Source: Rhyzopertha dominica (Eukaryota; Arthropoda; Insecta; Coleoptera; Bostrichidae). From it: a stretch of DNA of 64,000 nt. This document shows, piece by piece, positions 3,324 to 51,500 of the stretch (the first letter of the stretch is position 1; each line of letters starts with the position of its first letter). The DNA is taken from assembly GCA_025024175.1 (NCBI GenBank), contig QCXZ01000064.1:37283325-37347324 (forward strand). The letters run 5' to 3'. The notes beneath the pieces are model-generated. The model had not been told where the DNA came from, did not search any database, and was given only the letters and a program-made list of their open reading frames with translations. The position numbers and the translations under genes are program-made.

Positions 3324-3325
3324 TA

Positions 3326-19391: not shown

Positions 19392-19711
19392 TTTTTGTAT
19401 CCTTGCATGTCTGACAGGACTAAATAGCGTGAAACGATGTAAGTTAACACTGCAAATTTTGAGAATTAAAATATTTTCTGCCTCCGCAAATTCCTAATAA
19501 AGTAATTACATTCAGGCTTTCAGCATGTCCAAGCGTATTTAATTAGGAGAGCTTGTTTTTTCTTCTCACTGGGATGTCCCCGAAAGTCCAAATCGCCACG
19601 TTACGCAAGTCTAAGCAAGCTTGTAGCAAGGAAACATGGCCCTCCAGCAGCCACAAATCACCCGTCGTCCGTTTCAAAGCACAAAAAGTCCAAAAGAAGA
19701 AAACATTTTAC

Positions 19712-19999: not shown

Positions 20000-20471
20000 C
20001 TGAANGATGTTTTCATTGTCGGATGTATATGGAAATTGCGTAACGGGAATGTGGGGCATGCAAACACTGGGTATTGAAAATGCTTCTCTTTTATAAATGG
20101 AAAGTTACGGGAGCGATAAAGGGCCGCAGTTGGCGGTTGTTTAATTCGAGGCCGCTGCTGTGAAAATTGTACATTCGGAATTCATTAGAAAAAGGAATGT
20201 AATAGGGCAGTATACGCTAGGAACCTTAATAAAATAACATTGGGGTAATAATCAAATAATATTTTAAGGAATGTCGTGCAGTAATTAAAGACACAAATAG
20301 CAGCGGTGGCGAAACAGCTGGTAAATGTGCTATGATAATTTTAGAACATTATCTTGACAAACACTTTGTGTAATCCTTTTTTGCAACTAAATTCTACGAT
20401 AATGAGTCTGCTTGTTGTATGGCGAGCTGGGATTCATTCTTTGCTTTCTGCATTTTGTCAATCACCATGTT

Positions 20472-21150
20472 CAGGGTGTCCCATTATCGTTGTAATTGTA
20501 GGGTATCTCGGTAACTATTAATGCTAGAGGGTTGCGGTTTCAATATAACTGTATTACTTTTTTGTTCTGAGTTCAGCTGTACCGTCGCTGTTTTTGTATC
20601 GTCTTTTGTTTTAAAGGCATAGACAACTTATGTAAAATNCAACATTTCTCTAGCTGTCAATTTCTCGCTTGGGTATGTAGATACAGAAAAAGTGTAGACA
20701 CGTTTTATAGATATTTTTATTTTGCATCTAGTGCCGTACCCTGTAATTTTTTAGGAGGTCACATTTTTGAGATATAACAAAAACTTGCNGATTTTTAAAT
20801 GGAAACCATAGTTTGCTTTACTATGGTTGAAAAGGCCAATTTTATGTGATTAAATAAATGTATATATTGTTAGGTTTATTTATACTAATTTTGGAATCAT
20901 TCAAATTTTTAAAATAATTTAATCATATCTTACTTTTACATCCAGAAGGCAATGGAATAAGAAAACACACGATATAATTTATGTTATTAAATAAAAATTT
21001 TATTCCTTTAAAAATAATATATGCATATTTGAATACATACATAAGACTCCTAAGAGCGCTCATGTATTTTTTATCGATAATCTTGGAGGCCATGAAACTA
21101 ATGAAAATGGTTGTTTATTTGGAGATAAGTACCTATGCATTGTTTATAAA
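20472..21150 (+). mobile_element. fold-back element, one-armed truncated copy 2
   Basis: Starts with CAGGGTGTCCCATTATCG and follows copy 1 (3326) through the left arm and loop (for example the shared segment around ATATGCATATTTGAATACAT and the TTTTTTATCGATAATCT stretch). It then stops near TATGCATTGTTTATAA; the right arm is absent. No TA directly precedes the left end. It is a truncated relic unable to form the long hairpin. Confidence 0.8.
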
Positions 21151-21249
21151 CATAATAAAATAGTATTATGACAACACACCTTTTCTATATATCGCACACA
21201 ATTTCAGAAGTTACGCCGTACTGTAGGTAATTACTAGAAATAATAATAT

Positions 21250-23699: not shown

Positions 23700-25279
23700 A
23701 AAAACAGCAATATGTATCCAAATTTATCGGAATTCAGCCGAGTGGACATGAGTCAACTAAGGAAAATAGTTAATAATCTGGATAATAAATTCAATGTGAA
23801 TGATTGCACTAACTCTAGAATCCTAAAAAGAATATTTCAAACTATAGGTCATGTTATTTTGAATTTGATAAACACTTCACTGTCTGGTGCTTGTGTGCCC
23901 AACTTCATTAAAACTAGTACTATATTTCCTTATTTCCTGTACCAATGGTGGCAAACACTATTGAGTGCAGCGAATTTAGACCAATCAATACTTTGCCTGT
24001 TGTTGAGAAGATATTGGAAATGGTAGTTTACAGACAACTCTTACAGCACGTAGAAAAATATGAAATATTGTTGCCTTATCAATCCGGATTTAGGCAAAAT
24101 CACTCTTGTGAGAGTGCCCTCCAGTTGACTCCCAGTAAATTTTATGCCGATATTAGCACTAATAAGTATATTGTTTGTGTTTTTCTCGATTTGAAGCGAG
24201 CTTTTGAGACAATTGACAGGTTGATATTGCTCAGAAAATTATTTCAATATGGTTTTCAGGGAAAGGTGCACGAATGGTTGGCTAATTATTTAAGTAGTAA
24301 AAAACAGAGAGTGATTGGGGACATAGTTTCGGAAGAGGCGGTGAGTGAATGTGGGGTACCTCAGGGGAGTGTGATAGGGCCTCTGTTGTTTACATTATAT
24401 ATTAATGATATTGATTTGTTTGTTAGTTGTGATTTTCTAAATTTATTTGCAGATGATACATTACTTGTTGAAGGTGATTGTAATTTAGATGTAGCAATAA
24501 CAAAAATGAATAAAACTCTTGCAAAGGCAGAGCAGTGTCTAGCTTCAAATAGATTAAAGCTTAATGTATCAAAGACTAAGGGTATGATTGTGACTACTAA
24601 ATACAAATATAAATTTTTAGATTTAGATAAAATAGATTTGCATATTTGCAATTGTAGAATTGATATTGTAAGGATATATAAATACCTAGGTCTCACAATT
24701 GACTGCTTGTTTTCGTTTGATGAGCACTTTAACTACATGCAAAAGAAAATATCTAACAAGTTGTTCTTTTTATCAAGAGTGGGTAAATTCCTCTCTATGG
24801 AAACGACCATTACAGTATATAAAACTATTATACAACCTCATTTTGAATACTGTGCGTCGATAGTGTTCCAGTTCAACCTTAACAAGATGTCTTGCTTGCA
24901 AAAACTTCAAAATCGTGCAATGAGAATTATTCTAAAGTGTATCAGGCTTACGCCCATTAGGACTATGTTGATTGCTCTACAGTGGTTGAATATTGCGGAT
25001 AGGGTGCTGTATCTTACGATGGTCTTTATATATAAAATAATAAATAATTTCATGCCACCTTACCTAACAAAAATGATAGTTAGGGCACATGATGTTCATC
25101 AGTATGAAACTTGAAATGCTGGTGATATTTTTGTGAATAGAACTTACGCAACTACCTCTAAATCTCTATTTTTTAAAGGTTTTATAAAATACAATTCATT
25201 GCCACTTCATGCTAGATCTGCTAGATCTCTTAGATGCTTCAAATCACAGTTGCTGGTTTATATTACGGNCACTNGGTAG
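23700..25279 (+). mobile_element. 5'-truncated non-LTR retrotransposon (Jockey/CR1-like RT)
   Basis: The reverse-transcriptase ORF runs at 23945-25114. Motifs in order are FRPINTLPVVEKILE (residues 11-25), YQSGFRQNHSCESAL (45-59), VFLDLKRAFETID with catalytic Asp82, GVPQGSVIGPLLF (137-149), FADDTLL with Asp170/Asp171, and YLGLTID. A separate upstream frame (23712 to about 23935) carries the preceding part, so there is a frameshift near 23935. A TGA at 25112-25114 interrupts it, yet the same frame continues with DIFVNRTYATTSKSLFFKGF and KYNSLP to a TAG at 25277-25279, the usual C-terminal tail. The apurinic endonuclease domain is missing, so this is a 5'-truncated, inactive copy. Confidence 0.88.
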
Positions 25280-25467: not shown

Positions 25468-25558
25468 CTACTACCACTACTACTACTGCTACTGCTACTG
25501 CTACTGCTACTGCTACTGCTACTGCTACTGCTACTGCTACTGCTGCTACTACTACTGC
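25468..25558. repeat. (CTACTG)n / (CTA)n microsatellite
   Basis: A run dominated by the hexamer CTACTG (more than ten units), with CTA/CTG variants at both ends, just downstream of the non-LTR element. It is a simple-sequence expansion; no frame around it looks coding. Confidence 0.95.
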
Positions 25559-25559
25559 G

Positions 25560-27700
25560 CTACTGTTGTGGTTGCGCCTGCGTCGTAATGCTCATAAGCT
25601 CATAGTATGTTTACATATCAGTTCGTTGACCTATAGCCTCATTGTCACTTCTACTAAAATACTGTCACTGTTCAAAGTTCTAAAATAGTATTGACAGTAA
25701 GGCAGTTTGGCGTTAACCCTCGTATTCATCCAGTTTGAAATTTTCGGATTAGGAACAAGTTATACATTCGCTTGTTTACCTACATCAAAAAAGAAAAGTG
25801 CCAAGACAACAACTACAATTGGGAAAGGGATCATTTTCAGCTGATTGTTCCGGGAAAATTACCGGACTGGGCTTTAAATTCTTTCGTCAGAACCATCAAT
25901 GCCAATTTTTTTTGTTAATTGCGAACAACCTCTAACTCCTTGCTCTGTTATACTTTCATATTAGTTTGAAGTAGTTTTACCAAATCGATTTTTTTTGTTT
26001 CGAAATTTTTAGTGTGAAAACACGTCGCTCTTCATTATTAGCAAGAGTGATATAAAAAGTAACCCACACAACAGAAATATACCTAAAAGACAAAACCGCA
26101 CGATGTCACAACCAACCCAAAACGAAATGCAATTAGTTCTATAAACGTGAAGCCCTAGTATCGCGCAGCGCGCAGGCTTAACCCAAAAAACGGGTTTAAC
26201 CCTCCTGGATGGGTTGGTTTAACTTGCCGAGGAATTTAACCCGGTTTTACTAGTAATCGAGTACTGAAATACGCTGCGCGACTAGTAAAACACTTTATCT
26301 TTATCTATTAAATTACATTTAAAAAAATCTAATAAGATTCAGAGATCTTGTATTTTTCAGTTGAACAACAAGCGTCACCCTAAATGAATACCTAACCTAA
26401 AATTGACATACGGTCACAATATTTTTTAAATTGTGAGAACTAAGATTTCTCAGACTCGCTGTCACAAACAAACAAACAAACAAACAAAATAGAAGTATGT
26501 GCGTATGTACTACGAGTATAAATCCTTCCATTCGGGATACAGAACAATCCTATTCGGTAGCAACTCAGCTTCTGGGAGCGAATTCAGGTTCTTATAGATT
26601 GCTGATAGGAGGCGGCCTATGACCAGATGATGGATTTTGAATATGCTCAATGATAATGCTATGCAATTTCTTATTTATTGGATAAAAGTTAAATTTCTTT
26701 TTCATTTCAGGTCACAAAACTGTAAATAATAACTGGCGTTCATAAAAAACAAGTTAATTAAGCTACTGCTGATTTTCAACGTCGTGTGTTGTGTGTCGAT
26801 TGTCAAAAGACGCCTTTTTTGTAATTTACACGTTGTGGTTGTTCATAGGGTATGCGCGGTTTGTATACAATTTCAAAGAATCACCGGTGCCCGCATTATT
26901 AGTCTCGAGTAAAAGTAATAGCGAGTTATTTTCATCAGTGCAATAAAAAACGAATACGTCAATCGAACAAACGTCAAATGCGCATCAAATTTTAAGAACT
27001 AATTTACACGACAGGCGCTATGTTCGCATTAATAGAACAAAAATGGCTGCCTTGGCCAAGTTTTTTTATGAATTTCGTGTCAATTGTATAATATTACCCT
27101 ACAATAAAGATACTTATCGTAATAAAACAATACCAGATGTTTATTTGTTTGACTGCACTAAACGATACTAAATTTCGTCGAATCAAATTGTAAACAACGA
27201 ACTTGGCAAACCTCAAACTAAAATAAGTTCAAAATCATTAAAAGTTGAATGCAAAACAGTGCTTACTTAGAAAAACAGAGCACCTAATTTATTCTGACGT
27301 GTAATTTGCTAAGAGCATATTAAAACGCTATATTAAATACTCATATGTAATGTCCTTCTATCGCATGGTCATTGCAATTATTTCGCTGTGAATAAGATTA
27401 CAAATAAAACAAAAGGGAGCACATAATAAAACTAGTACTTATATCCTTACCTGTGGAAAACATTGCAACATTGTCAATAAGGAAATAATAGTTAAAATAA
27501 AATCACCTTCAGACCAGCTACATTATCTACAAAAAAAGATACTTGTGTATTACGAAAGTTCCTAAAGTTCGTTTTATGTCATCATTTCCATATTTTAGCT
27601 GTATTTTGCTGTAAATTTTGGGCATTAAGCTTTTTTATATATATTTTTAACTTTGAGTAATCCTGAGCACTACTTGTTTCACTCTTCACTCTTATGGCCG
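25560..27700. other. no gene recognised; contains (CAAA)n
   Basis: AT-rich intronic DNA. A short (CAAA)n run lies at about 26467-26488. The stretch at about 26160-26275 (GGCTTAACCC... to ACTGAAATACGC) looks like a transposon end; see the inverted pairing with 23590-23660 under findings. Confidence 0.5.
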
Positions 27701-31307: not shown

Positions 31308-31412
31308 ATATTCTCATTGACCCATGTTTAACAGCAAAATATTGATCTTGTGAGGCCATAATTTCATTGTAAGCAAAACCATTTTTTACGATAGAACTTA
31401 TTTGGCTGGCGT

Positions 31413-32222
31413 TGTTCCAGTTTAATAGGGGTGTTTTAAGTTTTCGCTGCCACCACCTCGCTTAGCGAGGAAAATTGTATTGAGCTCTTCGGAATGCGGG
31501 TTCTTCTCGAAGAAACGGGTCACTATTTTTATTATTATTATTTAGTTAGTTAACCTGAAAAGCAATTTTGAAAGAAAACTCCCCTAATCAATTGACAATC
31601 ACTATATTGACAATTAAAATAAAAACGAAATACAAGAGGAAACAAAAATATTAAAAGAAATGACAAGCAATAATGTTAATACTATAATAATAATACTAAT
31701 TCACAAATCTACGCAAGCATTTTACTGACGGGGAGTATTGCTTTACTTCGCAAGGAAAATAGAATTTAAGTTAAACAACAGATTCTGATTTAGAATTTGG
31801 TTTAGTTTTAAGATCTCAATCGAGTTTCTCGTTGTGAATGGAGAAAAAATGAAAATAATAATTTTGAGGTAACGATACCAAATTTGAGTCCCTCGATGTC
31901 GGGCAATCCCACACACTTCACACAAACGACGAAAATGTAATAGAACAGAATAGTTAACTGCGACACGAAATCGATGTTTTCGAAGTATCTTCGACCGTGG
32001 ACACCGGGGTACTGCTCTTTTTTAATTTTTCACGCGATCGGGAAACTTTCGCAAAAAAATGCGAATTTTGCAATGTTCGGTGAACGAACCTTGTGCAGTC
32101 GCGGCGGATTGCTGCGACAAGATGTTTTACGGGAAGTTTATGGATTCCGCATATCTCCCATTTCATCTTAGTTAGTCGATTTCGGCCGGATGCCGCCGGG
32201 TCAATGAATACCATGTATTACA
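31413..32222 (-). repeat. 3' LTR
   Basis: 810 bp, TG...CA in the element's sense. Compared with the 5' LTR I see only two one-base homopolymer differences (near 31567 and 31844). It includes an AAT-rich tract and the GAGCTCTTCGG segment shared with the other LTR. Confidence 0.95.
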
Positions 32223-32689: not shown

Positions 32690-33320
32690 ATTAGAAGTTG
32701 CTCGCAACTTCACTCCAGTGTGGTACGTTAGGGTAGAGGGAGATTCTACTTCCGTAAATAGGGTTGATATTGGATTCGGTCACGGAAGATGAAGTTTTGA
32801 CCCGTGCATTGTGTGAACGAGGTACTGGTTTTGGGTCCTCGGCGATCACTTCTGTTGGGGTATCGTCGGCGGTGTCTTCATGTTTGCTGGTACTCCCTTT
32901 TGTGTGTTGTCTATGCACAACCCATACTGCAAGGGTGTTCCATAGGCTTGCAAACAGTGCTAATCCGCATTCAAGGGCATTATATATATAGCTACTCCAA
33001 TTATGGTTACTTCGATGATATACTTCAAGGCTCTAATGACAACATAGATACCCATGACTCCACTCATTACCATTCCTATATCGGTGAACCAGCCCCACAC
33101 GTATTGTAATGTGGACCGTGCTAGACTTTTAATTTCTTGCGGATCGAATATATCAAGCGCTGACCGTTTCCTGGGTGTAATCNGTTCTTTCTTCGGCGCA
33201 GGGTGCTACATCGTTCATTGACACTGCCGTAATGTTCATAGTATTGTCCGCACAGTCATACGCGATAAAACCATAGCACAGCACGCACCAAGCACTTACA
33301 AACAGCACAGTTGAGAGCAT
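32690..33320 (-). pseudogene. env-like remnant downstream of pol
   Basis: An ATG at 33320-33318 opens a frame whose first ~20 residues are hydrophobic and signal-peptide-like. They are followed by a Cys- and potential N-glycosylation-containing ectodomain start (AYDCADN, MNIT, DVAPC). That frame stops just after the N at 33183. A second frame (about 33180-32960) carries a juxtamembrane-type segment (QYVWGWFTDIG) and a long hydrophobic membrane-anchor-like stretch, then stops at a TAG. A third frame (about 32960-32691) has a hydrophobic segment and a hydrophilic tail. At about 630 bp in total, it lacks most of a normal envelope ectodomain. I infer a degraded or internally deleted envelope gene. 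The N-terminal Cys/NIT/DV..C pattern faintly recalls chuvirus-type glycoproteins, but I could not test this. The frame breaks may be partly base-call errors. Confidence 0.55.
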
Positions 33321-33524
33321 TTCTCCTAAGTCAATATATACGTTTCTGCCAATATGAATGTCTGTCTTTACTGTATGAGGAAATTAACTTATAATATCTG
33401 AAATGTAGCACACGATTAAGACAGCTATACAATTAAAACAAGTCTAAATCTAACACAAGTCGGCGTCAAAAATTTGTAGAGGAACAAGTACGTACCGAAA
33501 CAGAAAAGAAAAAAGAAAATTGGA

Positions 33525-36155
33525 TTAATCGTATTCAGAAAAGGTGAATCTTTTAGGAGGTTTTCGAATTCTCGTACATACTTTTTTACCATCGCGTATC
33601 ACAGTACCTAATTCTTCCTCGTTTTGTACATCTGACTGTGGCTCAGGTACATCAGGAAGTACTCTGGTCAGAGCTGGGAAAATATTCATAGTTACTTCCC
33701 TTGGATTTATGCCAAAATCATCAACATTTTCAATTTGGGGTGTATTACCATCATAAACAGGAATAACTTCATTATTATCTAAAAAATTTTGTTCGTCAGT
33801 CTGGCACAACTTCAAACGATTTGAATGGACTACTAACTCTTGTCTGCCATTTAATTTTCTAATTTTGTAAGTCACAGGGCCCTTAACTTCAATTATCCGA
33901 TATGGACCTATCCATGGCTTGCCTAATTTTTTTGATAAGCCTACTTGTACGGTAGGGTCATTCAAATAAACCAATTGTCCCAAATCAAAATATTTAGATC
34001 TTGTTCTTTTGTTATAGTTAATAGCTTGACGAGCTTTTGCACTATCTAAGTTTTGTCGAACCGTAGTGAAAACTGAATTTAGCCTTGCCATCAATTCCGA
34101 AACGTAATTTTGATCGTAATCATACTTCACTACTTGTGGTTTTACAATGTCGTCGAATGGCAATACCGGATCTCTACCATGTAGTAAGAAATAAGGACTA
34201 AATCCTGTAGAGCTATGTATATTAAAACGATAGGCCATTACTACATAGGGGATCCAGATATCCCAGTCTTGCTGACTTTTTGCAACATAGTGAGAAATAA
34301 TATCCTTAAAAACCCTATGACTGCGCTCTATCAAACCGTTGGATTGGGGATGATAGGGAGTAGTCTGTAGCTTTTCAATATGTAGCAATTTACAAATATT
34401 TTTGAATAAATTTGACAAGAAATTACTACCTTGATCAGTTAGCAGTTGCTTTGGTGTTCCATGTCTGGCAATAATTTCCGTGACAAAAATACGCGCTATA
34501 GTGTCTGCTTTCTGATCAGAGATTGGAAATGCTTCTACATATTTACTAAAGTGGTCCTGGAAGGTCAACAGATACTTATTTCCTGCATAAGACGTGACAA
34601 AAGGACCACATATGTCCATGGAAGTTCTATCGAAAGGATACAGTACTTCAGGCATTTGTTCTAAAGGTACTTTCTTAAAATGGGGTGATGTTTTTCGCTG
34701 GCTACACGAATGACATTGTTGACAGTATTTGACTACATCAGACTTCATTCCGGGCCAAAAGAAACGCTGTTGTATTAAACTTAAGGTTTTAGCTTGACCC
34801 ATATGACCGCAGAAAGGCAAATCATGGAAGTCATGTAAAACCTTTTTGATATAGGTTTTTGGAATAACTAAGACATCGTTAAAATTTTCTGCTACTGTGG
34901 TTTTAAACAACAATCCATCGTTATCGAGGTAATAAGATAGAGGGTCTTCATTCTCTTCTAAATTCTGACAAATAGTACGGCAAAAATCATCACTCTTTTG
35001 TTCTTGTAAAATGATGTCTCTGTCCCATACTGGTAGGAAGGGAGGGTTCACCTCTATTGCATTTATACTTACCTGGCTCTGGTCAAATTCGTAGACTAAA
35101 ATTTCAATTGAAGATTTCGCAAAAATAAATTTAATCATTTTAGATACTGTACTCCATTCAAGCTTATCTCTGCCACATCCTAACTTAGGAATTGCCACAT
35201 TATAGTCGTCATTTTGCACACAAGATAGCCTTAAATTAATAAGAGCACTCCAAAGACTATCATACGTTGGTTTGTTGTAGTACTGACTTTTTGTAATTAA
35301 ACAATAAATATTACGTTCAGGTAAATTTAAAACAGCTACTTCTCCTACAGTTTTGTTTTGATTCTTAAGTTCATTTATTGAACCATATAATTGTCTAAAT
35401 TGTAGCGCTAATCCTTGTTCCATGGCAAAATCTTTTGATACACAGTGTGCCAAAGAATAATTATCTGGAGCAGTAAATAAATTTCCTTTTACCTCTCTAA
35501 AATTGTTATTCTCAATTTTGTTTTCTTTAATATATTCAAAAAAATTCTTTAGACTGTATGATTCAAAATTTTGTGGATCTACCGGAGCTCTGCTTAGAGC
35601 ATCTACATTTCCATGCTTACGTCCTTGCCTATGTACAATTTCAAAATCATAACTAGACAATAGGAGATTCCACCGAGCTAATTTAGACGTAGGGTCTTTT
35701 AGGGTCATCAGCCATTTTAAAGGCGCATGATCAGAAATTACTGTGAACTTTCGTCCGTATAAATAACACCGAAAATGTTTGACGCTTTCTACTACCGCGT
35801 ACAATTCTAGTTCAGTTGCCGAATAATTGCTTTGCGACTTATTCAACTTTTTACTAAAGAAGGCAATAGGTCTTTCGTAACCATTAACAACTTGGCTTAA
35901 TATGCCAGCGATTCCTATCTTACAAGCATCTGTAGCTAATATAAATGGATGGTCGAAATTTGGGTGAGCCAAGACAGATTCGGAAGTAATCGCATTCTTA
36001 AGTTCGTTGATTGCAGTAAGAGCATCAGCTGTAATTTTAAAGTCGGTCGACTTTTTTGTGAGATTAGTTAAAGGAGCAGCAATAATCGAGAAATTTGGTA
36101 TGAACCGTCTATACCAACCTACTAGTCCTAAAAATCCGCGTAATTCTTTAAACAC
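33525..36155 (-). CDS. pol: Ty3/gypsy Pol C-terminal part: RNase H, macro domain, integrase
   Basis: 876 codons in one frame. The start (MFKELRGFLGLVGWYRRFIP) is the end of the RT connection, not a true N terminus; a one-base difference near 36150 breaks the frame from RT, while the second copy at 40169 reads through. RNase H has ATDACKIGIAGIL (Asp76), ATELE (Glu115/117) and SDHAPLKWL (Asp142). Residues about 219-357 form a macro domain. Integrase has an N-terminal zinc motif (His441/His451, CQQC 478-481), a core with Asp514 (TSMDICGPF), Asp574 (LLTDQGSNF) and Glu610 (PQSNGLIERSHR), and a GPY/F-like WIGPYRI near the end. It would reverse-transcribe and integrate the element. All catalytic residues are intact. 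Confidence 0.95.
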   Translation of the reverse strand: MFKELRGFLGLVGWYRRFIPNFSIIAAPLTNLTKKSTDFKITADALTAINELKNAITSESVLAHPNFDHPFILATDACKIGIAGILSQVVNGYERPIAFFSKKLNKSQSNYSATELELYAVVESVKHFRCYLYGRKFTVISDHAPLKWLMTLKDPTSKLARWNLLLSSYDFEIVHRQGRKHGNVDALSRAPVDPQNFESYSLKNFFEYIKENKIENNNFREVKGNLFTAPDNYSLAHCVSKDFAMEQGLALQFRQLYGSINELKNQNKTVGEVAVLNLPERNIYCLITKSQYYNKPTYDSLWSALINLRLSCVQNDDYNVAIPKLGCGRDKLEWSTVSKMIKFIFAKSSIEILVYEFDQSQVSINAIEVNPPFLPVWDRDIILQEQKSDDFCRTICQNLEENEDPLSYYLDNDGLLFKTTVAENFNDVLVIPKTYIKKVLHDFHDLPFCGHMGQAKTLSLIQQRFFWPGMKSDVVKYCQQCHSCSQRKTSPHFKKVPLEQMPEVLYPFDRTSMDICGPFVTSYAGNKYLLTFQDHFSKYVEAFPISDQKADTIARIFVTEIIARHGTPKQLLTDQGSNFLSNLFKNICKLLHIEKLQTTPYHPQSNGLIERSHRVFKDIISHYVAKSQQDWDIWIPYVVMAYRFNIHSSTGFSPYFLLHGRDPVLPFDDIVKPQVVKYDYDQNYVSELMARLNSVFTTVRQNLDSAKARQAINYNKRTRSKYFDLGQLVYLNDPTVQVGLSKKLGKPWIGPYRIIEVKGPVTYKIRKLNGRQELVVHSNRLKLCQTDEQNFLDNNEVIPVYDGNTPQIENVDDFGINPREVTMNIFPALTRVLPDVPEPQSDVQNEEELGTVIRDGKKVCTRIRKPPKRFTFSEYD
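35085..35501 (-). other. TARG1/OARD1-like macro domain within Pol (copy 1)
   Basis: Residues about 219-357 of the 876-codon frame. Motifs in order: VKGNLF (family VKGDLF), SLAHCVSKDFAMEQGLALQF (family SLAHC(I/V)S.D..MG.GIA..F), GEVAVL, YCLITK with Lys289, KPTYDSLWSAL, and IPKLGCGRDKLEW with Asp330. In human TARG1 (OARD1) the equivalent Lys84 and Asp125 carry out cleavage of ADP-ribose from acidic residues, and both are present here. The family's adenine-contacting Asp in GDLF is Asn here (GNLF). The domain sits exactly between RNase H and the integrase zinc finger, in frame with both. Predicted role: removing mono-ADP-ribose from proteins or nucleic-acid ends. Confidence 0.93.
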
Positions 36156-38889
36156 TTTTTGGTAATGGAAAATTCTTAACCGCTATGAATTTTTCTGAAT
36201 CTGGCCTTATGCCATCTTCACTGATTACGTGGCCCAAATATTTTATTTGCTTCATTAGTAAGAAGCATTTATCTGGCTTTAATTTGATATTTGCATCTCT
36301 GAGTCTCTCAAAAACTAGTGCCAATTTCTCCAAATGATCATCTATACCGGCAGAGTTTAAAAATTATAATATCATCTAAGTAAGCTAGGCAAATCTGTCC
36401 AGTCAAACCTGATAAAGTAACATTAATAAATCGCTGAAATGTACTAGGACTGTTAACTAGGCCAAATGGCATCTTATTAAACTCCCAATGTTCTCCTAAA
36501 GTACTAAAAGCAGTTTTTTTCCTTATCGCCCTCCACCATATCTATTGGTGATAGGCTGATCGCAGCGTCGAGGGTACTAAAATAAATTTGCCTTACCAAA
36601 ATAGTCAAACGATTGCTGTAGATTTGCAATGGATAAAAATCTCGCTTTAGTAACAGCATTCAAACCTCGTAGTCTATAACACATACGAATTTTTTGTTCT
36701 CCTCCAGGCGTTTCCTTGTGATTAGCACTACGGGCGCGGGACCATGGAGATACAGATTCCCGAATTATATTACTTTCTAATAGTCGAGCAATTCTTTCTG
36801 TAGAATGGGTTTTGGATGATACGGTACTGGATACTGACGTTTAGCTATAGGAGCAACTTGCTCTGTTACAATTTGTGTTTCACCTTTGAAGTGCTGGTTA
36901 GAATTCCATCTTTTCATTACTAAAAAATGTGCTGAATAATTTTGTATCAACCCTCGTGCCTTATACGCTACGTCCGGTATTAAGGGATAAATCTGAACTG
37001 CGTTTTATAATTTTGCATCAGTATGAAAAATCTTTCAAATCGAGCATGGTCTCAAAGTCCTGGTACCATTGGGCTTTCCAGTACTTTTACATTTTGTACA
37101 GGCTAGGGCCAACTTTAGCTTTGGCTTTTAATGTAATGGGTTCATCTCTGACATTATCAACCTTAAATTACATTTACTGTCCATTATGTGCTAAAGAAAC
37201 GTGCCAAAATAACACCATTTTATTACCAATATCTTGGAGTCCTCTATTAGAACATTTTTCACCTTTTAATTTATTTTTAATTACGCCCATACAATTGATT
37301 TCGCATCTAGGGAGGCATTATTAAATCGTCTTTCCCAAAATAACATCAGAATATTCCATTTTATTTGTAACGGGGTTCATGTTTATTACTATTCATATTC
37401 TTACTCTGACTTTACTTATTTTATTCACTCTATTTAATTCTACTTGTTTTAAATCAGGCTTTCCCGCTGTGCAAAGCTTCTATAATAGTTTTCATCATCT
37501 GAATCATAGATCACTTACTTCACCATATTCGTCAACTAAAACCTCAACATTTATAACTTCTGGCAAATTATTACCTGTTTCAGAATAATTAGATTTATTT
37601 CCTTGCACATTTAAAATTAATATCCATTATTACTATTATTATCACTTAGTTAGCCTTCGCAGCAACTGCTAGGATTTTCTCTAATAACTTAATATATCTT
37701 CAGCAGGATATCTACATTTGACAACCTTTTCCGCAGCATTGGTCGACCTGTCCACTGGCCCCAATTGGCACCTGCGGATTTACTAACGATTTTTTCTACA
37801 CATTAAAGTTCCTCCAAAAGTGCTATTATTTTGGGGGGGAAGTTCGTTTTCGATAAACCTTCACAGGCATTATTGGAAAAATCAACCACCTTACCCCGTT
37901 TCCGTTGACCATTCGCTCCGTAAACCACAGACCCCACCACCATAATCTTTTCCATTAACATGCACATATAGTAAAGCCTGGTCGTCATTGATTAAAAAAC
38001 ATACCAAAAATATTTCTACCCCAAAGGTTTTAATTCTATATCCTCCAACCTGAAAATTAATTTTCAAAGCTGCGTTAAGCCCCTAAGAAAATCTCTTGCC
38101 TAAAAATGTCCATCCTGTCTTTGTATGAGGGCTGTCATTCAGCAAACAATAAATTTTAAAAACAGCACCAATTTAACTTTTCACTTGTACCTACAATAAT
38201 TTCGGATGTTCCTAAAGCTTCTACGCTATGTCCAGTTATTCCAGTGAGCTGATATTCTTCGGTTCGTATTAGATTATTACATTGAATAAATTTACTTTTT
38301 ATTAATGACACTTGAGAACCACTGTCCACAAAGAAACTACAGTTTCTGCCATTTACATGCAAATATATTACACTCGGAGTATCAGCTACACTTTCATAAT
38401 TAATTTTTGGGACGCTAACAATAAATTGTTTACTGCAAGTGGAATTTTGGAAATTTTCTAAGGGTTGTATAAAAGCTGATGATTTTCAGAAGTATTTAAT
38501 TCCCTCCGGTTTGGGGAGCAATCGAAGGGTTGTTCCAGTTTAAAGAAGCTACCGTTTTAGAAACTGAATTTTGACTACTACTTTGAAAATTTTGATTCGG
38601 GGGCGGTTGACGATTAAAAGTTTGATTGGCGTAATCATCGCGACGCGCGAATTGGTTAGCGTTAACATTATTTGGACGGCTGCGGTTGACATAATTATTA
38701 CTTGGACCTGGTTTGTGCTGACTTCGATCAAAATGGTGGCCAAAGTTATGATGGTTAAAATTTGGATGAGGCTGCTCGGCTGTCTAAAATTTCCAGAAAA
38801 TTGGTAGTTTTTGTCTACCGCCATAATTATTTGGGTTCGCCTGATTCGAATTCCCATTAAAGTGAGGCCGATTTCGACATTCGTTGGCA
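36148..38889 (-). pseudogene. error-rich duplicate of RT/protease/gag end
   Basis: This stretch repeats 40169-42816 but with dozens of one- to few-base insertions and deletions, for example extra T in the YLDD-flanking region near 36350 and doubled bases throughout 36850-38100. RT pieces are readable (KLALVFERLRDANIKLKPDK at 36148-36333). A protease piece at 38156-38362 has FFVDSGSQVSLI, with the catalytic Asp. No continuous frame survives. The pattern (homopolymer-biased indels that worsen towards the N gap) looks like unpolished long-read sequence at a contig end rather than evolutionary decay. Confidence 0.85.
38156..38362 (-). CDS. retroelement aspartic protease fragment
   Basis: Contains FFVDSGSQVSLIKSKF, the D(S/T)G active-site triad of retropepsins with its following hydrophobic strand, and later GHSVEALGTSEIIVG, which resembles the flap/second strand region. 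It lies between the gag zinc knuckle and RT, as expected for gag-pro-pol order. The equivalent in the cleaner copy lies at about 42100-42290, where a one-base insertion (near 42199) breaks the frame instead. Confidence 0.8.
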   Translation of the reverse strand: MHVNGRNCSFFVDSGSQVSLIKSKFIQCNNLIRTEEYQLTGITGHSVEALGTSEIIVGTSEKLNWCCF

Positions 38890-38989
38890 NNNNNNNNNNN
38901 NNNNNNNNNNNNNNNNNNNNNNNNNNNNNNNNNNNNNNNNNNNNNNNNNNNNNNNNNNNNNNNNNNNNNNNNNNNNNNNNNNNNNNNNN
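38890..38989. other. assembly gap (100 N)
   Basis: Exactly 100 N, the conventional placeholder for a gap of unknown size. The flanks overlap by about 3.9 kb of the same element (34969-38889 against 38990-42816), so the gap is likely an artefact and its true size negative. Confidence 0.97.
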
Positions 38990-40743
38990 CAAATAGTACG
39001 GCAAAAATCATCACTCTTTTGTTCTTGTAAAATGATGTCTCTGTCCCATACTGGTAGGAAGGGAGGGTTCACCTCTATTGCATTTATACTTACCTGGCTC
39101 TGGTCAAATTCGTAGACTAAAATTTCAATTGAAGATTTCGCAAAAATAAATTTAATCATTTTAGATACTGTACTCCATTCAAGCTTATCTCTGCCACATC
39201 CTAACTTAGGAATTGCCACATTATAGTCGTCATTTTGCACACAAGATAACCTTAAATTAATAAGAGCACTCCAAAGACTATCATACGTTGGTTTGTTGTA
39301 GTACTGACTTTTTGTAATTAAACAATAAATATTACGTTCAGGTAAATTTAAAACAGCTACTTCTCCTACAGTTTTGTTTTGATTCTTAAGTTCATTTATT
39401 GAACCATATAATTGTCTAAATTGTAGCGCTAATCCTTGTTCCATGGCAAAATCTTTTGATACACAGTGTGCCAAAGAATAATTATCTGGAGTAAATAAAT
39501 TTCCTTTTACCTCTCTAAAATTGTTATTCTCAATTTTGTTTTCTTTAATATATTCAAAAAAATCCTTTAGACTGTATGATTCAAAATTTTGTGGATCTAC
39601 TGGAGCTCTGCTTAGAGCATCTACATTTCCATGCTTACGTCCTTGCCTATGTACAATTTCAAAATCATAACTAGACAATAGGAGATTCCACCGAGCTAAT
39701 TTAGACGTAGGGTCTTTTAGGGTCATCAGCCATTTTAAAGGCGCATGATCAGAAATTACTGTGAACTTTCGTCCGTATAAATAACACCGAAAATGTTTGA
39801 CGCTTTCTACTACCGCGTACAATTCTAGTTCAGTTGCCGAATAATTGCTTTGCGACTTATTCAACTTTTTACTAAAGAAGGCAATAGGTCTTTCGTAACC
39901 ATTAACAACTTGGCTTAATATGCCAGCGATTCCTATCTTACAAGCATCTGTAGCTAATATAAATGGATGGTCGAAATTTGGGTGAGCCAAGACAGATTCG
40001 GAAGTAATCGCATTCTTAAGTTCGTTGATTGCAGTAAGAGCATCAGCTGTAATTTTAAAGTCGGTCGACTTTTTTGTGAGATTAGTTAAAGGAGCAGCAA
40101 TAATCGAGAAATTTGGTATGAACCGTCTATACCAACCTACTAGTCCTAAAAATCCGCGTAATTCTTTAACACTTTTTGGTAATGGAAAATTCTTAACCGC
40201 TATGAATTTTTCTGAATCTGGCCTTATGCCATCTTCACTGATTACGTGGCCCAAATATTTTATTTGCTTCATTAGTAAGAAGCATTTATCTGGCTTTAAT
40301 TTGATATTTGCATCTCTGAGTCTCTCAAAAACTAGTGCCAATTTCTCCAAATGATCATCTATACCGGCAGAGTTAAAAATTATAATATCATCTAAGTAAG
40401 CTAGGCAAATCTGTCCAGTCAAACCTGATAAAGTAACATTAATAAATCGCTGAAATGTACTAGGACTGTTAACTAGGCCAAATGGCATCTTATTAAACTC
40501 CCAATGTTCTCCTAAAGTACTAAAAGCAGTTTTTTCCTTATCGCCCTCCACCATATCTATTTGGTGATAGGCTGATCGCACGTCGAGGGTACTAAATAAA
40601 TTTGCCTTACCAAAATAGTCAAACGATTGCTGTAGATTTGGCAATGGATAAAAATCTCGCTTAGTAACAGCATTCAAACCTCGGTAGTCTATACACATAC
40701 GAATTTTTTGTTCTCCTCCAGGCGTTTCCTTTGTGATTAGCAC
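38990..40743 (-). CDS. pol: Ty3/gypsy Pol: RT, RNase H and macro domain (copy 2, cut by gap)
   Basis: Clean reading frame from the RT fingers to the N gap. RT motifs: ETPGGEQKIRMCIDYRGLNA (residues 7-26), STLDVRSAYHQID with Asp54, MPFGLVNSPSTFQRFI, and LAYLDDIIIF with Asp118/Asp119. Unlike 33525-36155, it continues in frame through KSVKELRGFLGLVGWYRR into RNase H, the macro domain and the start of the integrase linker before the gap. The first Met is internal: RT sequence continues upstream (PWSAPVV-type region at about 40745-40790) across a frame break. It differs from copy 1 by few substitutions, one changing Asn to Asp just before the macro domain, and by a 3-bp deletion in the macro domain. 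Confidence 0.93.
39106..39519 (-). other. TARG1/OARD1-like macro domain (copy 2)
   Basis: Same motifs as copy 1 (LITK and GCGRDKLEW intact) but one residue shorter: GNLFTPDNYS here against GNLFTAPDNYS there, an in-frame 3-bp difference at about 39490. Both versions are open, so the difference may be allelic or between element copies. Confidence 0.9.
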
Positions 40744-40790
40744 TACGGGCGCGGACCATGGAGATACAGATTCCCGAATTATATTACTTT

Positions 40791-41786
40791 CTAATAGTCG
40801 AGCAATTTCTTTCTGTAGAATGGGTTTTTGATGGATACCGGTACTGGATACTGACGTTTAGCTATAGGGAGCAACCTTGCTCTGTTACAATTTGGTGTTT
40901 CACCTTTGGAAGTGCTGGTTAGAATTTCATCTTCATTACTAAAAATGTCTGAATAATTTTGTATCAACCCTCGTACCTTATACGCTACGTCCGTATTTAA
41001 GTGTGATAAATCTAACTGGTTTATAATTTGATCAGTATGAAAATCTTTCAAATCGGCATGTCTCAAAGTCCTGGTACATTGGGCTTCCAGTACTTTTACA
41101 TTTGTACAGGCTAGGCCAACTTTAGCTTTGGCTTTTAATGTAATGGGTTCATCTCTGACATTTATCAACCTTAAATTACATTTACTGTCATTATGTGCTA
41201 AAGAACGTGCCAAAATAACACCATTTATACCAATATCTTGAGTCTCTATTAGAACATTTTCACCTTTTAATTTATTTTTAATTACGCCCATACAATTGAT
41301 TTCGCATCTAGGAGGCATTATTAAATCGTCTTCCAAAATAACATCAGAATATTCCATTTTATTTGTAACGGGTTCATGTTTATTACTATCATATTCTACT
41401 CTGACTTTACTTATTTATTCACTCTATTTAATTCTACTTGGTTTTAAATCAGTTCCCCGCTGTGCAAAGCTTCTATAATAGTTTTCATCATCTGAATCAT
41501 AATCACTTACTTCACCATATTCGTCAACTAAAACCTCAACATTATAACTTCTGGCAAAATTATTACCTGTTTCAGAATAATTAGATTTATTCCTTGCACA
41601 TTTAAAATTAATATCATTATTACTATTATTATCACTAGTAGCCTTCGCAGCACTGCTAGGATTTTCTCTAATAACTAATATATCTTCAGCAGGATATCTA
41701 CATTTGACAACCTTCGCAGCATTGTCGACTGTCACTGGAATTGACCTGGGATTACTAACATTTTCTACAACATTAAATTCCTCCAA
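40791..41786 (-). CDS. Pol N-terminal linker between protease and RT
   Basis: Two frames, 41424-41786 and 40791-41357, are readable here. The first is acidic (EVSDYDSDDENYYRSFAQRG). The second contains PPRCEINCMGVI, GVILARSLAH and YKVRGLIQNYSDIFSNEDE, a typical Ty3/gypsy region between protease and RT, ending KRQYPVPVSIKNPFYRK just before RT. The frames are offset by small indels, which I attribute to base errors or mild decay. There is no independent function; this is part of the polyprotein. Confidence 0.75.
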
Positions 41787-42656
41787 AAGTGCTATTATTT
41801 TGGGGAAGTTTGTTTTCGATTAACCTTCTACAGCATTATTGAAATCAACACCTACCCCGTTCGTGACATCGCTCGTAAACACAGTCCCACACCATATCTT
41901 TTCCATTAACATGCACATTATAGTAAGCCTGGTCGTCATTGATTAAAAACATACAAAAATATTTACCCCAAAGTTTAATCTTATCCTCACTAAAATTAAT
42001 TTCAGCTGCGTTAGCCCCTAAGAAAATCTCTTCCTAAAATTCCATCTGTTTGTATGAGGCTGTCATCACAAACAATAAATTTAAAAACAGCACAATTTAA
42101 CTTTTCACTTGTACCTACAATAATTTCGGATGTTCCTAAAGCTTCTACGCTATGTCCAGTTATTCCAGTGAGCTGATATTCTTCGGTTCGTATTAGGATT
42201 ATTACATTGAATAAATTTACTTTTTATTAATGACACTTGAGAACCACTGTCCACAAAGAAACTACAGTTTCTGCCATTTACAATGCAAATATATTACACT
42301 CGGAGTATCAGCTACACTTTCATAATTAATTTTTTGGGACGCTAACAATAAATTGTTTACTGCAAGTGGAATTTTGGAAATTTTCTAAGGGTTGTATAAA
42401 ACGCTGATGATTTTCAGAAGTATTTAATTCCCTCCGGTTTGGGGAGCAATCGAAGGGTTGTTCCAGTTTAAAGAAGCTACCGTTTTAGAAACTGAATTTT
42501 GACTACTACTTTTGAAAATTTTGATTCGGGGGCGGTTGACGATTAAAAGTTTGATTGGCGTAATCATCGCGACGCGCGAATTGGTTAGCGTTAACATTAT
42601 TTGGACGGCTGCGGTTGACATAATTATTACTTGGACCTGGTTGTTGCTGACTTCGA

Positions 42657-43521
42657 TCAAAATGGTGGCCAAGTATGATGGTTAAAATTTGGATGAGGCT
42701 GCCTCGGCTGTCTAAAATTTCCAGAAAATTGGTAGTTTTGTCTACCGCCATAATTATTTGGGTTCGCCTGATTCGAATTCCCATTAAAGTGAGGNCGATT
42801 TCGACATTCGTTGGCATAGTGATTAAATTTGTCGCATTTGAAGCATTTAACGGCTAATATAGACCCAGAATTTTGTCTGTTCGTTAACATTAAAGAATTT
42901 AGTTCTTCTTGCCTTGCAAAATTTTCTGCCTGATCTATAGTTAAGCCAGCAGTTCGCATTAATAAAGTCCCAATATTACGCATGTATTCTTTTTTTAAAC
43001 CAGCCTTAAATTGGTGTAATACTAGCTCATTACATTTTTTCTTTAAACCTGCTATTTCAAAAGCTTGTGAAGTAGCCGTATCCTCCCTTAAAATTTCTGC
43101 CCCTAAAATTTTTAAACGACCTACATAATCGGAAACAGATTCGTCGTGTCTTTGAAAACATCGACTTAGTTTCATAAGCGCCTCGCCTGGTATTTTAATA
43201 GGTGAAAACCTTTTAATAAATTTATCTTCGAAGTCTGTAAATGAAAGTGGTTGGGTCTTCAAATGCAGGGTCAGTTTTAGAAATCTGTACGCTTTCTCCG
43301 GTCAAACGAAATTTAACTATATCTACGGTTGTTTTTTCGTCCCAATTGTCCAAACGAGCACGCAACCTAATTTTTTCAAAGTACTCCGTAACGCGTTCCC
43401 GTCCCGAAAAAGATTCCACCGTATTGGCAACCATGCCTAAAGACAGTGTTTGAGGAATATTTGCATTCAAAACGACATCAGTGTTTTCTCTAACTGCTGC
43501 AGGAAGATTTTCTTGCGGCAT
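42657..43521 (-). CDS. gag: Ty3/gypsy Gag with CCHC zinc knuckle
   Basis: Starts MPQENLPAAVRENTDVVLNA at 43521. The capsid-type region includes VESFSGRERVTEYFEKIRLR and, after a one-base frame change near 43250, FTDFEDKFIKRFSP and QRHDESVSDYVGRLKILGAE, the usual retrotransposon gag pattern (F...F...L..R.Q...ESV..Y..R...L). The zinc knuckle CFKCDKFNHYANEC (about 42805-42846) is a perfect CX2CX4HX4C for RNA packaging. An Asn/Gln/Pro-rich tail follows (NSNQANPNNYGGRQ). The frameshift could be real or a base error. Confidence 0.9.
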
Positions 43522-43872: not shown

Positions 43873-44684
43873 TGTTCCAGTTTAATAGGGGTGTTTTAAG
43901 TTTTCGCTGCCACCACCTCGCTTAGCGAGGAAAATTGTATTGAGCTCTTCGGAATGCGGGTTCTTCTCGAAGAAACGGGTCACTATTTTTATTATTATTA
44001 TTTAGTTAGTTAACCTGAAAAGCAATTTTTGAAAGAAAACTCCCCTAATCAATTGACAATCACTATATTGACAATTAAAATAAAAACGAAATACAAGAGG
44101 AAACAAAAATATTAAAAGAAATGACAAGCAATAATGTTAATACTATAATAATAATACTAATTCACAAATCTACGCAAGCATTTTACTGACGGGGAGTATT
44201 GCTTTACTTCGCAAGGAAAATAGAATTTAAGTTAAACAACAGATTCTGATTTAGAATTTGGTTTAGTTTTAAGATCTCAATCGAGTTTCTCGTTGTGAAT
44301 GGAGAAAAAAATGAAAATAATAATTTTGAGGTAACGATACCAAATTTGAGTCCCTCGATGTCGGGCAATCCCACACACTTCACACAAACGACGAAAATGT
44401 AATAGAACAGAATAGTTAACTGCGACACGAAATCGATGTTTTCGAAGTATCTTCGACCGTGGACACCGGGGTACTGCTCTTTTTTAATTTTTCACGCGAT
44501 CGGGAAACTTTCGCAAAAAAATGCGAATTTTGCAATGTTCGGTGAACGAACCTTGTGCAGTCGCGGCGGATTGCTGCGACAAGATGTTTTACGGGAAGTT
44601 TATGGATTCCGCATATCTCCCATTTCATCTTAGTTAGTCGATTTCGGCCGGATGCCGCCGGGTCAATGAATACCATGTATTACA
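43873..44684 (-). repeat. 5' LTR
   Basis: 812 bp and apparently free of substitutions relative to the 3' LTR (two one-base homopolymer indels, near 44028 and 44306). It is followed by GCGT, which also precedes the 3' LTR at 31409-31412. Confidence 0.95.
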
Positions 44685-45866
44685 GCGTGACCGTAATAGA
44701 TCACAGAAGCTTCATGCGATACATGTAATATGAAGGTTTCAACACATACAAATAAGCGACATATTGCGTGATACAGGTACGTCACAGTTCGACATAACGA
44801 ACAGGCGTTTCCACTTTAAACCACACAAAACAAAACCATATATTTAAAATATTCACCCCTTGTAAGAATATATGTAATGTGACATTAAAACTTATTTGGA
44901 CAACGTTTGTATGACGACACTATTAAGATACTAACATCTTAATCGCACTTAAAGTTGTTAAGTTAATGGTTCGACAGAAGCAAATTATGTAGTGATGGTT
45001 GTAAAAAATGTTAACAGAGCCTATCTTATGCAGGAGAGGGCTAATGCCCTCAACGCCTTCTAAGCGAAACTCTGCAAAATAGGCGAGCTGATAAGCTTCT
45101 CCGTGGTTATCTTAGTTCGGAGATCATGTGAAATTGGCATTCGCAATGTTTTTCAAAAGCGTATACCGGGAAGTGAAAATGAAGATTTATTGTGTTCACA
45201 GCTAAGGATTTCAACTGGATTTATGAGGATTTCCCAAAATTTACTGTAAATAAGTAAAAAGGCGATAGAAATACCAATAGACATGCACACATCCGCTATA
45301 TAATGTATAATGTCACCGTGACGCAAATGCTGTGTGATGTAATAAAAACTGAAAACTGCCTAAATTATTAATGATGATTAAATACACAATAAAGACGAAG
45401 CCATCCAGTTATAAAAATCATAATGTGCGGGTATATAGTAAGTAGTATTTTCGTTTGCATCAAAATCTTACAAAAATTTAGAGTGTTACTGTTTGCATTA
45501 AACGAAATAAATTCTGCAGCACTTGCAAGGGCTAGACGTGACACAGACATCATACTAAAAATCGTACTTATAAACTTTTAGTTCTGAAGTTGGAGACTGA
45601 TCAGGTATTTAGGCACTGCTCAGAATATTTTGTATATATGAGCTTTTTTAATGTGACTGACTTAAAAACTCCGAGTAGCAGTGGTGGTTCCTGATAATAC
45701 CTACTGGGTCGGCAGTAAAAACTTTGGTCCACCCTAGTTCGTCTAAATTATTTATTTTTGAATTAGTAAATAATTTGTATATACTCATAGTTGTTTCTTG
45801 TTTATTACTGTTACTAATCCTACTACAGGTTAATTTTCATGTCGCCACAAGTTAAAAAGATAAACC

Positions 45867-49549: not shown

Positions 49550-51500
49550 GCACAGGATTATCAAGGCTTTCTTTTGCAACATGAATTATTTTTTTTAACA
49601 CTTGAAGAGCTTCCCCGCAACAATATGCCATACGTTTCAATACTGTAAAAATTGGTATATGTTAGTTTCGCGCATTGAAACGTGAAAAGGCCTTTTGTCC
49701 TTCTTATTGAGTATATTGCTGAAGAGAGTTTCTTGTACGTTTCGTCAACATGTATTGAGCAATTCATTTTATTATCAATGTATATTCCAAGAAATTTAAT
49801 TAACGACTTTTCCTTATTTTACTTGCGTTTGACAATAATTGTTTTTCTTTTACCATTGACCTTCATCCTGTTTGTGTCAAACTGTTTTCGGGCTTCGCCG
49901 AAGACATCTTTTTCTTTTTGTTGCATTTCTTTTTTTTCTTTTGCTTTGATTATTAATGCCCAGTACTGTGACCTTCATGTTGTAGAAAAAATCGTTTAAG
50001 TAAATTATAAATAAAACTATACCTAAGATCGATCCTTGCGTAACGCCACAATTAGAGTGTCGTTCTTCAGATTTGATTCTTTTGCACTCCACCAGTTGGT
50101 GGCCCTTGTTCAAGTAAGATTTTATTTCGTTGGATTTTCCTCTAACGCCATATTCGGTTAACTTTTGTATTAAAATCCCATGTGAAATGGTGTCGAGTGC
50201 TTTGGTCTTATTGCACATGATAATTTTATCTTTTTCCGAATAGGCTTTCTCGAGCGCGCTGGTGATTGCTGTAATTATTTTTTCCGTATCCATGTTGACT
50301 ATTATCCAATATACTTTTTCTTTCAATGAATGAGACAATTCAACTTTTGAGTAAAGATTGAAAAATTGTTGATTTGCCCGGAAGGATGAAGATTCATCTG
50401 TAATAACCACAATCATTAACATCATCTCCTTTATGAAGCGGTACGAATTTCTTGGGCAATGTACTACAGAAAACTTGTACATAGTCCACAAACATATTCA
50501 GCCTTTGATGGCTTTAACGATTAAATGGAGTCTTGATTGTTCCTCTTGTGTTTTAGTAACTCAAGAGAGTGCCTTGATTGTGATGTGCTTTTGTTTGTTC
50601 GTTCTCCAATTTATGAAAAGAAGCTGTTAAGATCTTTTGCTGTTAATATCCTCACATTGCCTAAACGTTTTTTGCCACTCTTATTTTAATCAGATTCAAT
50701 ATTGAACGTTACTAATTTGATGCTCTGTTAATGGCTAGCATGTTCTGTTGTTGTTTTATTTCTGTAACCTTTCTGCGATACTTTTGTCTAAGTTCATTGT
50801 ATTGCCGTATTTTTAATACTTTGAATTTCGGATGTGATTTTCATTTCCATGCTACAGGTAGTTACTAAACTTTTACTTTTTACTGCAGTCTATGGAAGCA
50901 ACAATATCCTTGAGATGCAGTCAGATTAATCAAGAAGTCCCTAGAAACTAAACTATAGGTTGTTTTGAATATTGCTACACCCAGAATGTTTATTCGTGAA
51001 CATGCAATAGCTATGCATGATGATCCCAAATTTGTAAATTCTTGGTGAACCTTTGTATGACCTGATTATTGTCAATATTTGTGAACATATTATCGATGCA
51101 GGCAGATGTGGATGTTTCTGTTATCCTAGAAGGCGTTTTCATAAAATGACTCAATCCAAATGATTTCGTTTCTTAGAAGAGTTGTCTTACTTTCAAATTA
51201 TTCCAACAAAATGATGTTATAAACACCCAACACATATAACCGACGTCTAGAGATCTTATTGCTGATTACGTTTAAAGTTTCGTTCATTATACGCAAAAAA
51301 TGATTTAACACNGAGTAAAGAGGACTCTTATTATTAGCATATTTCTAGCGGGTATGTAATTAGCTACCATTTGCACTACCTTGTTTCTACGATAATTTCG
51401 TGATTACGCTTATGGGTCTATATTTGATATCGTCCCTAACTGTTATTAATGCTCCGCCATGTTTTGTCGAGGTCTACAGTAAATTGTCTAAATTGTCGTT
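49550..51500 (-). mobile_element. decayed non-LTR retrotransposon (endonuclease and RT)
   Basis: Minus-strand fragments appear in the correct order. Endonuclease domain: TKHGGALITVRDDIKYRPIS (about 51415-51474) and FLRIMNETLNVISNKISRR followed by YVLGVYNIILLE (about 51208-51312), the latter matching the (V/L)GDFNIDLL catalytic strand with the Asp eroded. RT palm: DTISHGILIQKLTEYGVRGK and CGVTQGSILGIVLFIIYLND (49940-50260). RT thumb: KFLGIYIDNKMNC, KKLSSAIYSIRR and YGILLRGSSSS (49561-49800). The FADD catalytic box is lost at a break near 49930. No intact frame remains. Confidence 0.82.

What the first reader, a model, noticed from the sequence alone, without database searches (positions are those of the whole stretch)
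35085..35501. A TARG1-like ADP-ribose hydrolase (macro) domain built into a Ty3/gypsy polyprotein
Seen: between RNase H (Asp142) and the integrase zinc motif (CQQC 478-481) of an intact 876-codon Pol frame lies about 140 residues with the full motif series of TARG1/OARD1, including the catalytic Lys (LITK, residue 289) and Asp (GCGRD, residue 330). Known: TARG1 removes ADP-ribose from Glu/Asp and can act on nucleic-acid ADP-ribosylation; several RNA viruses carry macro domains that counter PARP-based antiviral defence; some lentiviruses place an accessory dUTPase at the same RNase H-integrase junction. Inference: the element may use this domain to reverse host ADP-ribosylation of its particles, integrase or cDNA ends. 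I am not aware of a described retrotransposon system of this kind but cannot search.
Basis: partly seen in the sequence, partly recalled or inferred. Interest (0 to 1): 0.92.

Follow-up and report, generated by a model that had tools for sequence, protein, structure and literature searches.

The report
ADP-ribose-removing domain inside insect retroelement
A virus-like jumping element in what is probably an insect genome carries, inside its replication polyprotein, a domain closely resembling the cellular enzyme TARG1 that removes ADP-ribose tags, which suggests, but does not prove, that the element fights or exploits this tagging system of its host.

The parts
31409..31412 (.). target-site duplication GCGT (left)
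   Evidence: read from flank printed
31413..32222 (-). 3' LTR (element on minus strand), TG...CA ends
   Evidence: blastn self-match, 99.75% to 43873-44684; ends printed
32694..33032 (-). envelope remnant, C-terminal tail piece
   Evidence: PF24664 Monjiviricetes_fusion, profile 577-637, E 5.4e-4, 18.5 bits, below cut-off 27
32963..33205 (-). envelope remnant, piece with a transmembrane-like stretch (judged by eye), other frame
   Evidence: PF24664, profile 518-579, E 9.5e-13
33156..33383 (-). envelope remnant, N-terminal piece
   Evidence: PF24664, profile 4-57, E 6.1e-10
33525..36155 (-). open Pol frame: RT C-terminus, RNase H, macro domain, integrase with GPY motif
   Evidence: ORF; Pfam RT_RNaseH, Integrase_H2C2, rve, Integrase_p58_C above cut-off; GPYRI at residue 750
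35085..35501 (-). TARG1/OARD1-type macro domain, Pol residues 219-357
   Evidence: phmmer PDB E 9.1e-35; fold match; coordinates
35289..35291 (-). catalytic Lys codon (Pol Lys289, equivalent to human Lys84)
   Evidence: Lys in 120 of 121 aligned homologs; catalytic role recalled
35166..35168 (-). catalytic Asp codon (Pol Asp330, equivalent to human Asp125)
   Evidence: Asp in 121 of 121 aligned homologs; catalytic role recalled
38156..38485 (-). protease fragment with DSG motif
   Evidence: four aspartyl protease Pfam models, E 5e-4 to 4e-3, all below cut-off; translation
38890..38989 (.). assembly gap of 100 N; 34969-38889 on its left is repeated by 38990-42816 on its right
38857..40743 (-). 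same Pol segment in the right-hand contig: RT, RNase H, macro domain in one frame, cut by the gap (the listed ORF runs on through the N)
   Evidence: RVT_1 E 3.6e-33, RNase H, Macro 13.6 bits below cut-off; translation
42657..43262 (-). gag fragment with CCHC zinc knuckle
   Evidence: Retrotrans_gag E 4.4e-6 above cut-off; zf-CCHC E 9e-4 just below cut-off
43873..44684 (-). 5' LTR
   Evidence: PBS-like TGGTGGCAGC two bases after it (judged by eye)
44685..44688 (.). target-site duplication GCGT (right)
   Evidence: read from flank printed

Best explanation
A TARG1-type macro domain was captured, without introns, into the pol gene of an envelope-bearing Ty3/gypsy element of (probably) an insect, between RNase H and integrase. 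It is made as part of Pol, so it is delivered inside particles with the enzymes that copy and integrate the element (inferred). There it most likely acts as an ADP-ribosylhydrolase: the conserved lysine attacks the ADP-ribose linkage and the conserved aspartate assists, stripping ADP-ribose from acidic residues of element or host proteins, or from nucleic-acid ends, and so relieving host ADP-ribosylation during reverse transcription or integration (inferred from the TARG1 family; not shown). Shown: identity, predicted fold, catalytic residues, reading frame, element anatomy. Inferred: packaging, activity, substrate, benefit.
For: TARG1 is the best sequence and fold match by a wide margin. Lys and Asp are kept, and 45 of 54 columns conserved at over 75% in the aligned homologs keep the consensus residue. 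The domain is in frame in both assembled versions, which differ there by one substitution and one 3-base indel, whereas 36.5-38.2 kb differs by over a hundred gap positions. The LTRs differ by two gap openings and no substitution, so the insertion looks young and its open frame probably reflects a recently active parent (inferred). The envelope remnant points to virus-like ancestry. Arthropod viruses carry the same kind of fold. A review reports that viral macro domains counter host ADP-ribosylation (PMC8003356, passages), and another that ADP-ribosylation of KAP1 silences L1 in mammals (PMC4695847, passages).
Against: Four residues around the ADP-ribose site (Glu and Gln in loop 1, Leu just after, Arg beside the catalytic Asp; human positions 41, 42, 44, 124) occur in 0 of 121 aligned homologs, and so do Cys77 and Asp109 of P0001 at otherwise conserved columns. 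They may weaken ligand binding or catalysis. Only one element was seen, so conservation since capture cannot be measured. No Pol relative with the domain was found (0 of 220 candidates). This copy's envelope is internally deleted and frame-broken, so this copy is defective. Whether insects use ADP-ribosylation against retroelements was not searched for.
Confidence: 0.5

Rival explanations
1. The domain is a reader, not an eraser: fused in front of integrase, it binds ADP-ribosylated chromatin or proteins and tethers the integration complex, much as the chromodomain at the C-terminus of chromovirus Pol is thought to do.
For: It lies directly upstream of the integrase N-terminal region. Loop-1 and Leu-to-Arg changes could reduce turnover while binding is kept. 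A chromodomain at the C-terminus of Pol is a known acquisition (PMC12440569, passage; its tethering role is recalled).
Against: Both catalytic residues are kept, which a pure binder would not need. It is not known whether protease separates the domain from integrase.
Confidence: 0.2
2. A passenger: a one-off capture by template switching in a single element or small family, tolerated because it does not disrupt Pol, without function.
For: Only one element seen; no related Pol found (all limited searches). The macro end branch is the longest in a quick tree, 1.31 changes per column. Third-position GC of the domain is lower (0.194) than in RNase H and integrase (0.299 each) (not tested for significance).
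Against: Catalytic residues and 45 of 54 conserved columns are intact despite the long branch, though part of that branch may predate the capture. No stop or frameshift in the 139 or 138 codons of the two assembled versions.
Confidence: 0.25
3. An assembly chimera joining a host TARG1 gene to a gypsy element.
For: The assembly is rough here: 100-N gap, unmerged overlap, many indels.
Against: The domain's junctions are in frame on both sides without N; two contigs hold the same RNase H-macro arrangement; the element has matching LTRs and a target duplication.
Confidence: 0.02
4. On a separate question, the structure of the locus: two tandem pol segments inside one element (a true 4-kb internal duplication).
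For: Two near-identical segments lie between one LTR pair.
Against: The repeat ends at the last base before the 100-N gap and restarts at the first base after it, the signature of two overlapping contigs left unmerged.
Confidence: 0.04

Closest known systems
Human TARG1/C6orf130/OARD1 (PDB 4j5q, 4j5r, 4j5s)
   Different: a domain of a retroelement Pol, not a free protein; loop-1 and Leu124 positions changed
Fish endogenous retroviruses with macro-domain ORFs (Basta et al. 2009, cited in PMC4977317; original not held, only the citing sentence seen)
   Same: retroelement with a captured macro domain
   Different: Epsilon-like retroviruses of ray-finned fish, described as additional open reading frames; macro class and position not seen
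Arthropod viruses with TARG1-like folds (BFVD: Kadipiro virus VP8 43%, thrips-associated flavi-, negev- and virga-like proteins 26-33%, Armadillidium iridescent virus 39%, Invertebrate iridescent virus 6 032R 38%)
   Same: macro fold matching the model in viral proteins
   Different: RNA or large DNA viruses, not reverse-transcribing elements
dUTPase domains in retroelement Pol (bdelloid rotifer LTR elements, PMC5408684 passages; the RNase H-integrase position in some lentiviruses is recalled)
   Same: accessory enzyme domain built into Pol
   Different: different enzyme; in the rotifer elements the legend lists it between protease and RT
Anakin BEL/Pao elements with chuvirus glycoprotein (PMC7642597 passages)
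   Same: LTR element with a chuvirus-type envelope
   Different: BEL/Pao; no macro domain mentioned in the passages seen; here a gypsy-type element with an envelope remnant

Membership tests
TARG1/OARD1 macro domain family | sequence closest to TARG1 among solved macro domains | tested here: met
   best five of 8 PDB sequences are C6orf130/TARG1, E 9e-35 to 2e-34; next 5m31 (DarG) 3e-4
TARG1/OARD1 macro domain family | macro fold superposing on TARG1 | tested here: met
TARG1/OARD1 macro domain family | catalytic Lys84 and Asp125 (roles recalled) | tested here: met
   Lys289 and Asp330; columns hold K in 120 of 121 and D in 121 of 121 homologs
TARG1/OARD1 macro domain family | usual loop-1 residues and Leu/Ile beside the catalytic Asp | tested here: not met
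   Glu38, Gln39, Leu41, Arg121 of P0001 each seen in 0 of 121 homologs; Gly40 and Ala42 are kept. I treat this as variation inside the family, not as a defining failure
TARG1/OARD1 macro domain family | ADP-ribosylhydrolase activity | not testable with these tools
   needs an assay
Ty3/gypsy (Metaviridae) LTR element | order protease-RT-RNase H-integrase | tested here: met
   read across the two contigs; the protease hits are below Pfam cut-offs
Ty3/gypsy (Metaviridae) LTR element | LTR pair with TG...CA ends and short target duplication | tested here: met
   99.75% over 812 columns; GCGT both sides
Ty3/gypsy (Metaviridae) LTR element | placement by RT phylogeny | not tested
   no reference set of gypsy RT was available; lineage within gypsy not determined
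Envelope-bearing retroelement (retrovirus-like) | intact envelope gene | tested here: not met
   three pieces match PF24664 profile 4-57, 518-579 and 577-637 only; the middle was not found and frames differ. Ancestry only
MacroD-type viral macro domains (corona-, toga-, iridoviruses) | closest to the MacroD class | tested here: inconclusive

The most novel reading that the evidence does not exclude
A lineage of insect retroviruses built from gypsy and a chuvirus-type envelope carries its own TARG1-type ADP-ribosylhydrolase within Pol, delivered with integrase, to erase host ADP-ribosylation of particles or cDNA ends. This would imply that insects restrict reverse-transcribing elements by ADP-ribosylation.
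Probability: 0.28. Interest if true: 0.85.

Novelty: new variant of a known kind. Interest (0 to 1): 0.62.

Why it matters
Macro domains that counter PARP-based defence are known from RNA viruses. One fixed inside the Pol of an LTR element would be a strong hint that ADP-ribosylation touches reverse-transcribing elements in insects, and it gives a cheap test: purify the domain and see whether it removes ADP-ribose, and from what. The envelope remnant adds a gypsy-type case to chuvirus glycoprotein capture, for which PMC10084718 (passage) found no clear gypsy example.

Tried and rejected
True tandem duplication of pol: rejected, because the repeat abuts both edges of a 100-N gap. Assembly chimera: rejected, because two contigs agree and the frames run through. 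Source of the domain: a quick tree of 121 rows (the window domain plus the best 120 of 3,221 hits) leaves it on a 1.31 branch with no starred set; origin from host, virus or other animal is unresolved. It stands outside the dipteran TARG1s in that tree, which is not a firm exclusion for a long branch.

Relatives: the Pol search scored on the macro region returned 0 of 220 candidates (only proteins of about 487-1549 aa are candidates, so longer Gag-Pol fusions are missed). A search with the domain alone returned 3 of 30 candidates, none Pol-sized. Five scans of viral contigs gave only three loci, all, at 23-27% identity; I did not examine their surroundings. The genome-contig scan gave 12 bacterial or archaeal loci at 30-43% identity, none followed up. 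A phage DNA search gave nothing. Rfam found nothing.

Literature: ten searches, of which eight concerned macro domains and two other points. Searches found no paper; two (one opened), five (two opened), one (opened); one search listed 25 of 311 and one search listed 15 of 5,070 (any two of four terms; none of the 15 holds 'macrodomain'), so these two are weak. Basta et al. 2009 and Sharifi et al. 2013 are not held.

Full report
What is there. The minus strand of the window holds an LTR element between 31413 and 44684. Its LTRs (31413-32222 and 43873-44684) are 99.75% identical over 812 columns with no substitution and two gap openings. They have TG...CA ends and are flanked by the 4-base duplication GCGT on both sides; a PBS-like TGGTGGCAGC begins two bases after the 5' LTR and a purine-rich GAGGGGGAG lies three bases before the 3' LTR (PBS and PPT judged by eye). 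From 5' to 3' on the element come gag with a zinc knuckle (42657-43262), protease with a DSG motif (38156-38485, hits below cut-off), RT, RNase H, the macro domain, integrase ending in a GPY motif, and an envelope remnant.

The assembly. A gap of exactly 100 N lies at 38890-38989. The sequence that ends at its left edge (34969-38889) is repeated by the sequence that begins at its right edge (38990-42816). This is the mark of two overlapping contigs that were not merged, so I read one element of roughly 9.3 kb, seen twice in its middle. Differences between the two versions cluster at 36.5-38.2 kb; in the macro region they are one substitution and one 3-base indel. The left version keeps RNase H, macro and integrase in one frame; the right version keeps RT, RNase H and macro in one frame. 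I did not merge or mend them.

Active site. In an alignment with 121 homologs (the best 120 of 3,221 database hits, plus human), 54 columns are conserved above 75%; the window keeps the consensus in 45, and one of the nine that differ is the start-Met column. The catalytic lysine is present (120 of 121 homologs have it) and so is the aspartate (121 of 121). That these are catalytic in TARG1 is recalled; the primary paper is not held. Against activity: Glu and Gln at human positions 41 and 42, Leu at 44 and Arg at 124 are seen in 0 of 121, as are Cys77 and Asp109 of P0001. Loop 1 keeps its invariant Gly and Ala. I rate an active hydrolase as somewhat more likely than not, but a binder is open.

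Ancestry of the element. Three separate open pieces between the pol stop and the 3' LTR match PF24664, a fusion glycoprotein of Monjiviricetes (the negative-strand class that includes chuviruses, recalled), at profile 4-57 (E 6e-10), 518-579 (E 1e-12) and 577-637 (E 5e-4, below cut-off) of 653. The middle was not found and the pieces lie in different frames, so this copy has no working envelope, but its ancestor probably carried one. PMC10084718 (passages and its Results section) reports gypsy fragments beside chuvirus-like glycoproteins in Hymenoptera and Coleoptera, and two complete elements (an unclassified one in Bemisia tabaci and an Anakin), but 'no clear evidence' of capture by gypsy. 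The present case lies within one LTR pair with a target duplication.

Host. A Dpr4-like immunoglobulin exon at 19674-20012 (-) (PDB match to Defective proboscis extension response 4, E 3e-18; a titin chain ranks above it, E 7e-21, with no single stretch passing) points to an insect. The order was not determined, and another arthropod is not excluded.

Relatives and origin. The protein database holds NCBI and UniRef eukaryote proteins, yet a search scored on the macro region with Pol-sized candidates found none of 220 at E 0.001 or better. That search needs shared 5-residue words and covers about 487-1549 aa. The quick tree of 121 domains leaves the window's domain on the longest end branch, 1.31, unplaced. 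Foldseek against viral models finds matching folds in Kadipiro virus VP8 (43% identity), thrips-associated flavi-, negev- and virga-like proteins and iridescent viruses. So arthropod viruses appear to have taken up this kind of domain more than once, and the donor could have been host or virus.

How it most likely works. As part of Pol it should be packaged and reach the reverse-transcribing particle (inferred from how gypsy Pol is made). TARG1 cleaves ADP-ribose from acidic residues (PMC4695847 passages) and, as I recall, from nucleic-acid ends. Viral macro domains counter antiviral ADP-ribosylation (PMC8003356 passages). PMC7729036 (passages) places those of corona-, toga- and iridoviruses in the MacroD class, unlike this one. 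I therefore favour an eraser that protects particle proteins, integrase or cDNA ends, at about 0.5; a reader that tethers integrase at 0.2; a passenger at 0.25.

Novelty. Accessory domains in Pol (dUTPase; chromodomain) and macro-domain ORFs in fish ERVs (PMC4977317, one passage) are known. A TARG1-type domain inside a gypsy Pol between RNase H and integrase was not found in eight full-text searches on macro domains of a library that lacks most subscription papers; not every listed paper was opened. I class it as a new variant of a known kind.

Noticed in passing
32694-33383 (-): Internally deleted, frame-broken remnant of a Monjiviricetes (chuvirus-type) fusion glycoprotein inside a gypsy-type LTR pair; PMC10084718 found no clear gypsy case of this capture.
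   Followed up: partly
38890-38989 with 34969-38889 and 38990-42816: 100-N gap with the same 3.9 kb on both sides: unmerged contig overlap, which doubles the middle of the element in the assembly.
   Followed up: yes
3321-4432, 20467-21157, 52697-53824: A dispersed repeat about 77-84% alike in three places; two of them consist of inverted arms of about 430 bases, like a foldback or long-TIR element.
   Followed up: no
23918-25114 (+) and 49877-50497 (-): Reverse transcriptase frames (RVT_1 E 2e-29 and 2e-8), probably LINE-type elements.
   Followed up: no
19674-20012 (-) and 62047-62430 (-): Dpr4-like immunoglobulin exon; the second stretch looks by eye like another Dpr exon (no Pfam hit), so the elements may sit in introns of one dpr gene.
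   Followed up: partly
25477-25565: Hexanucleotide tandem repeat CTACTG, 15 copies.
   Followed up: no
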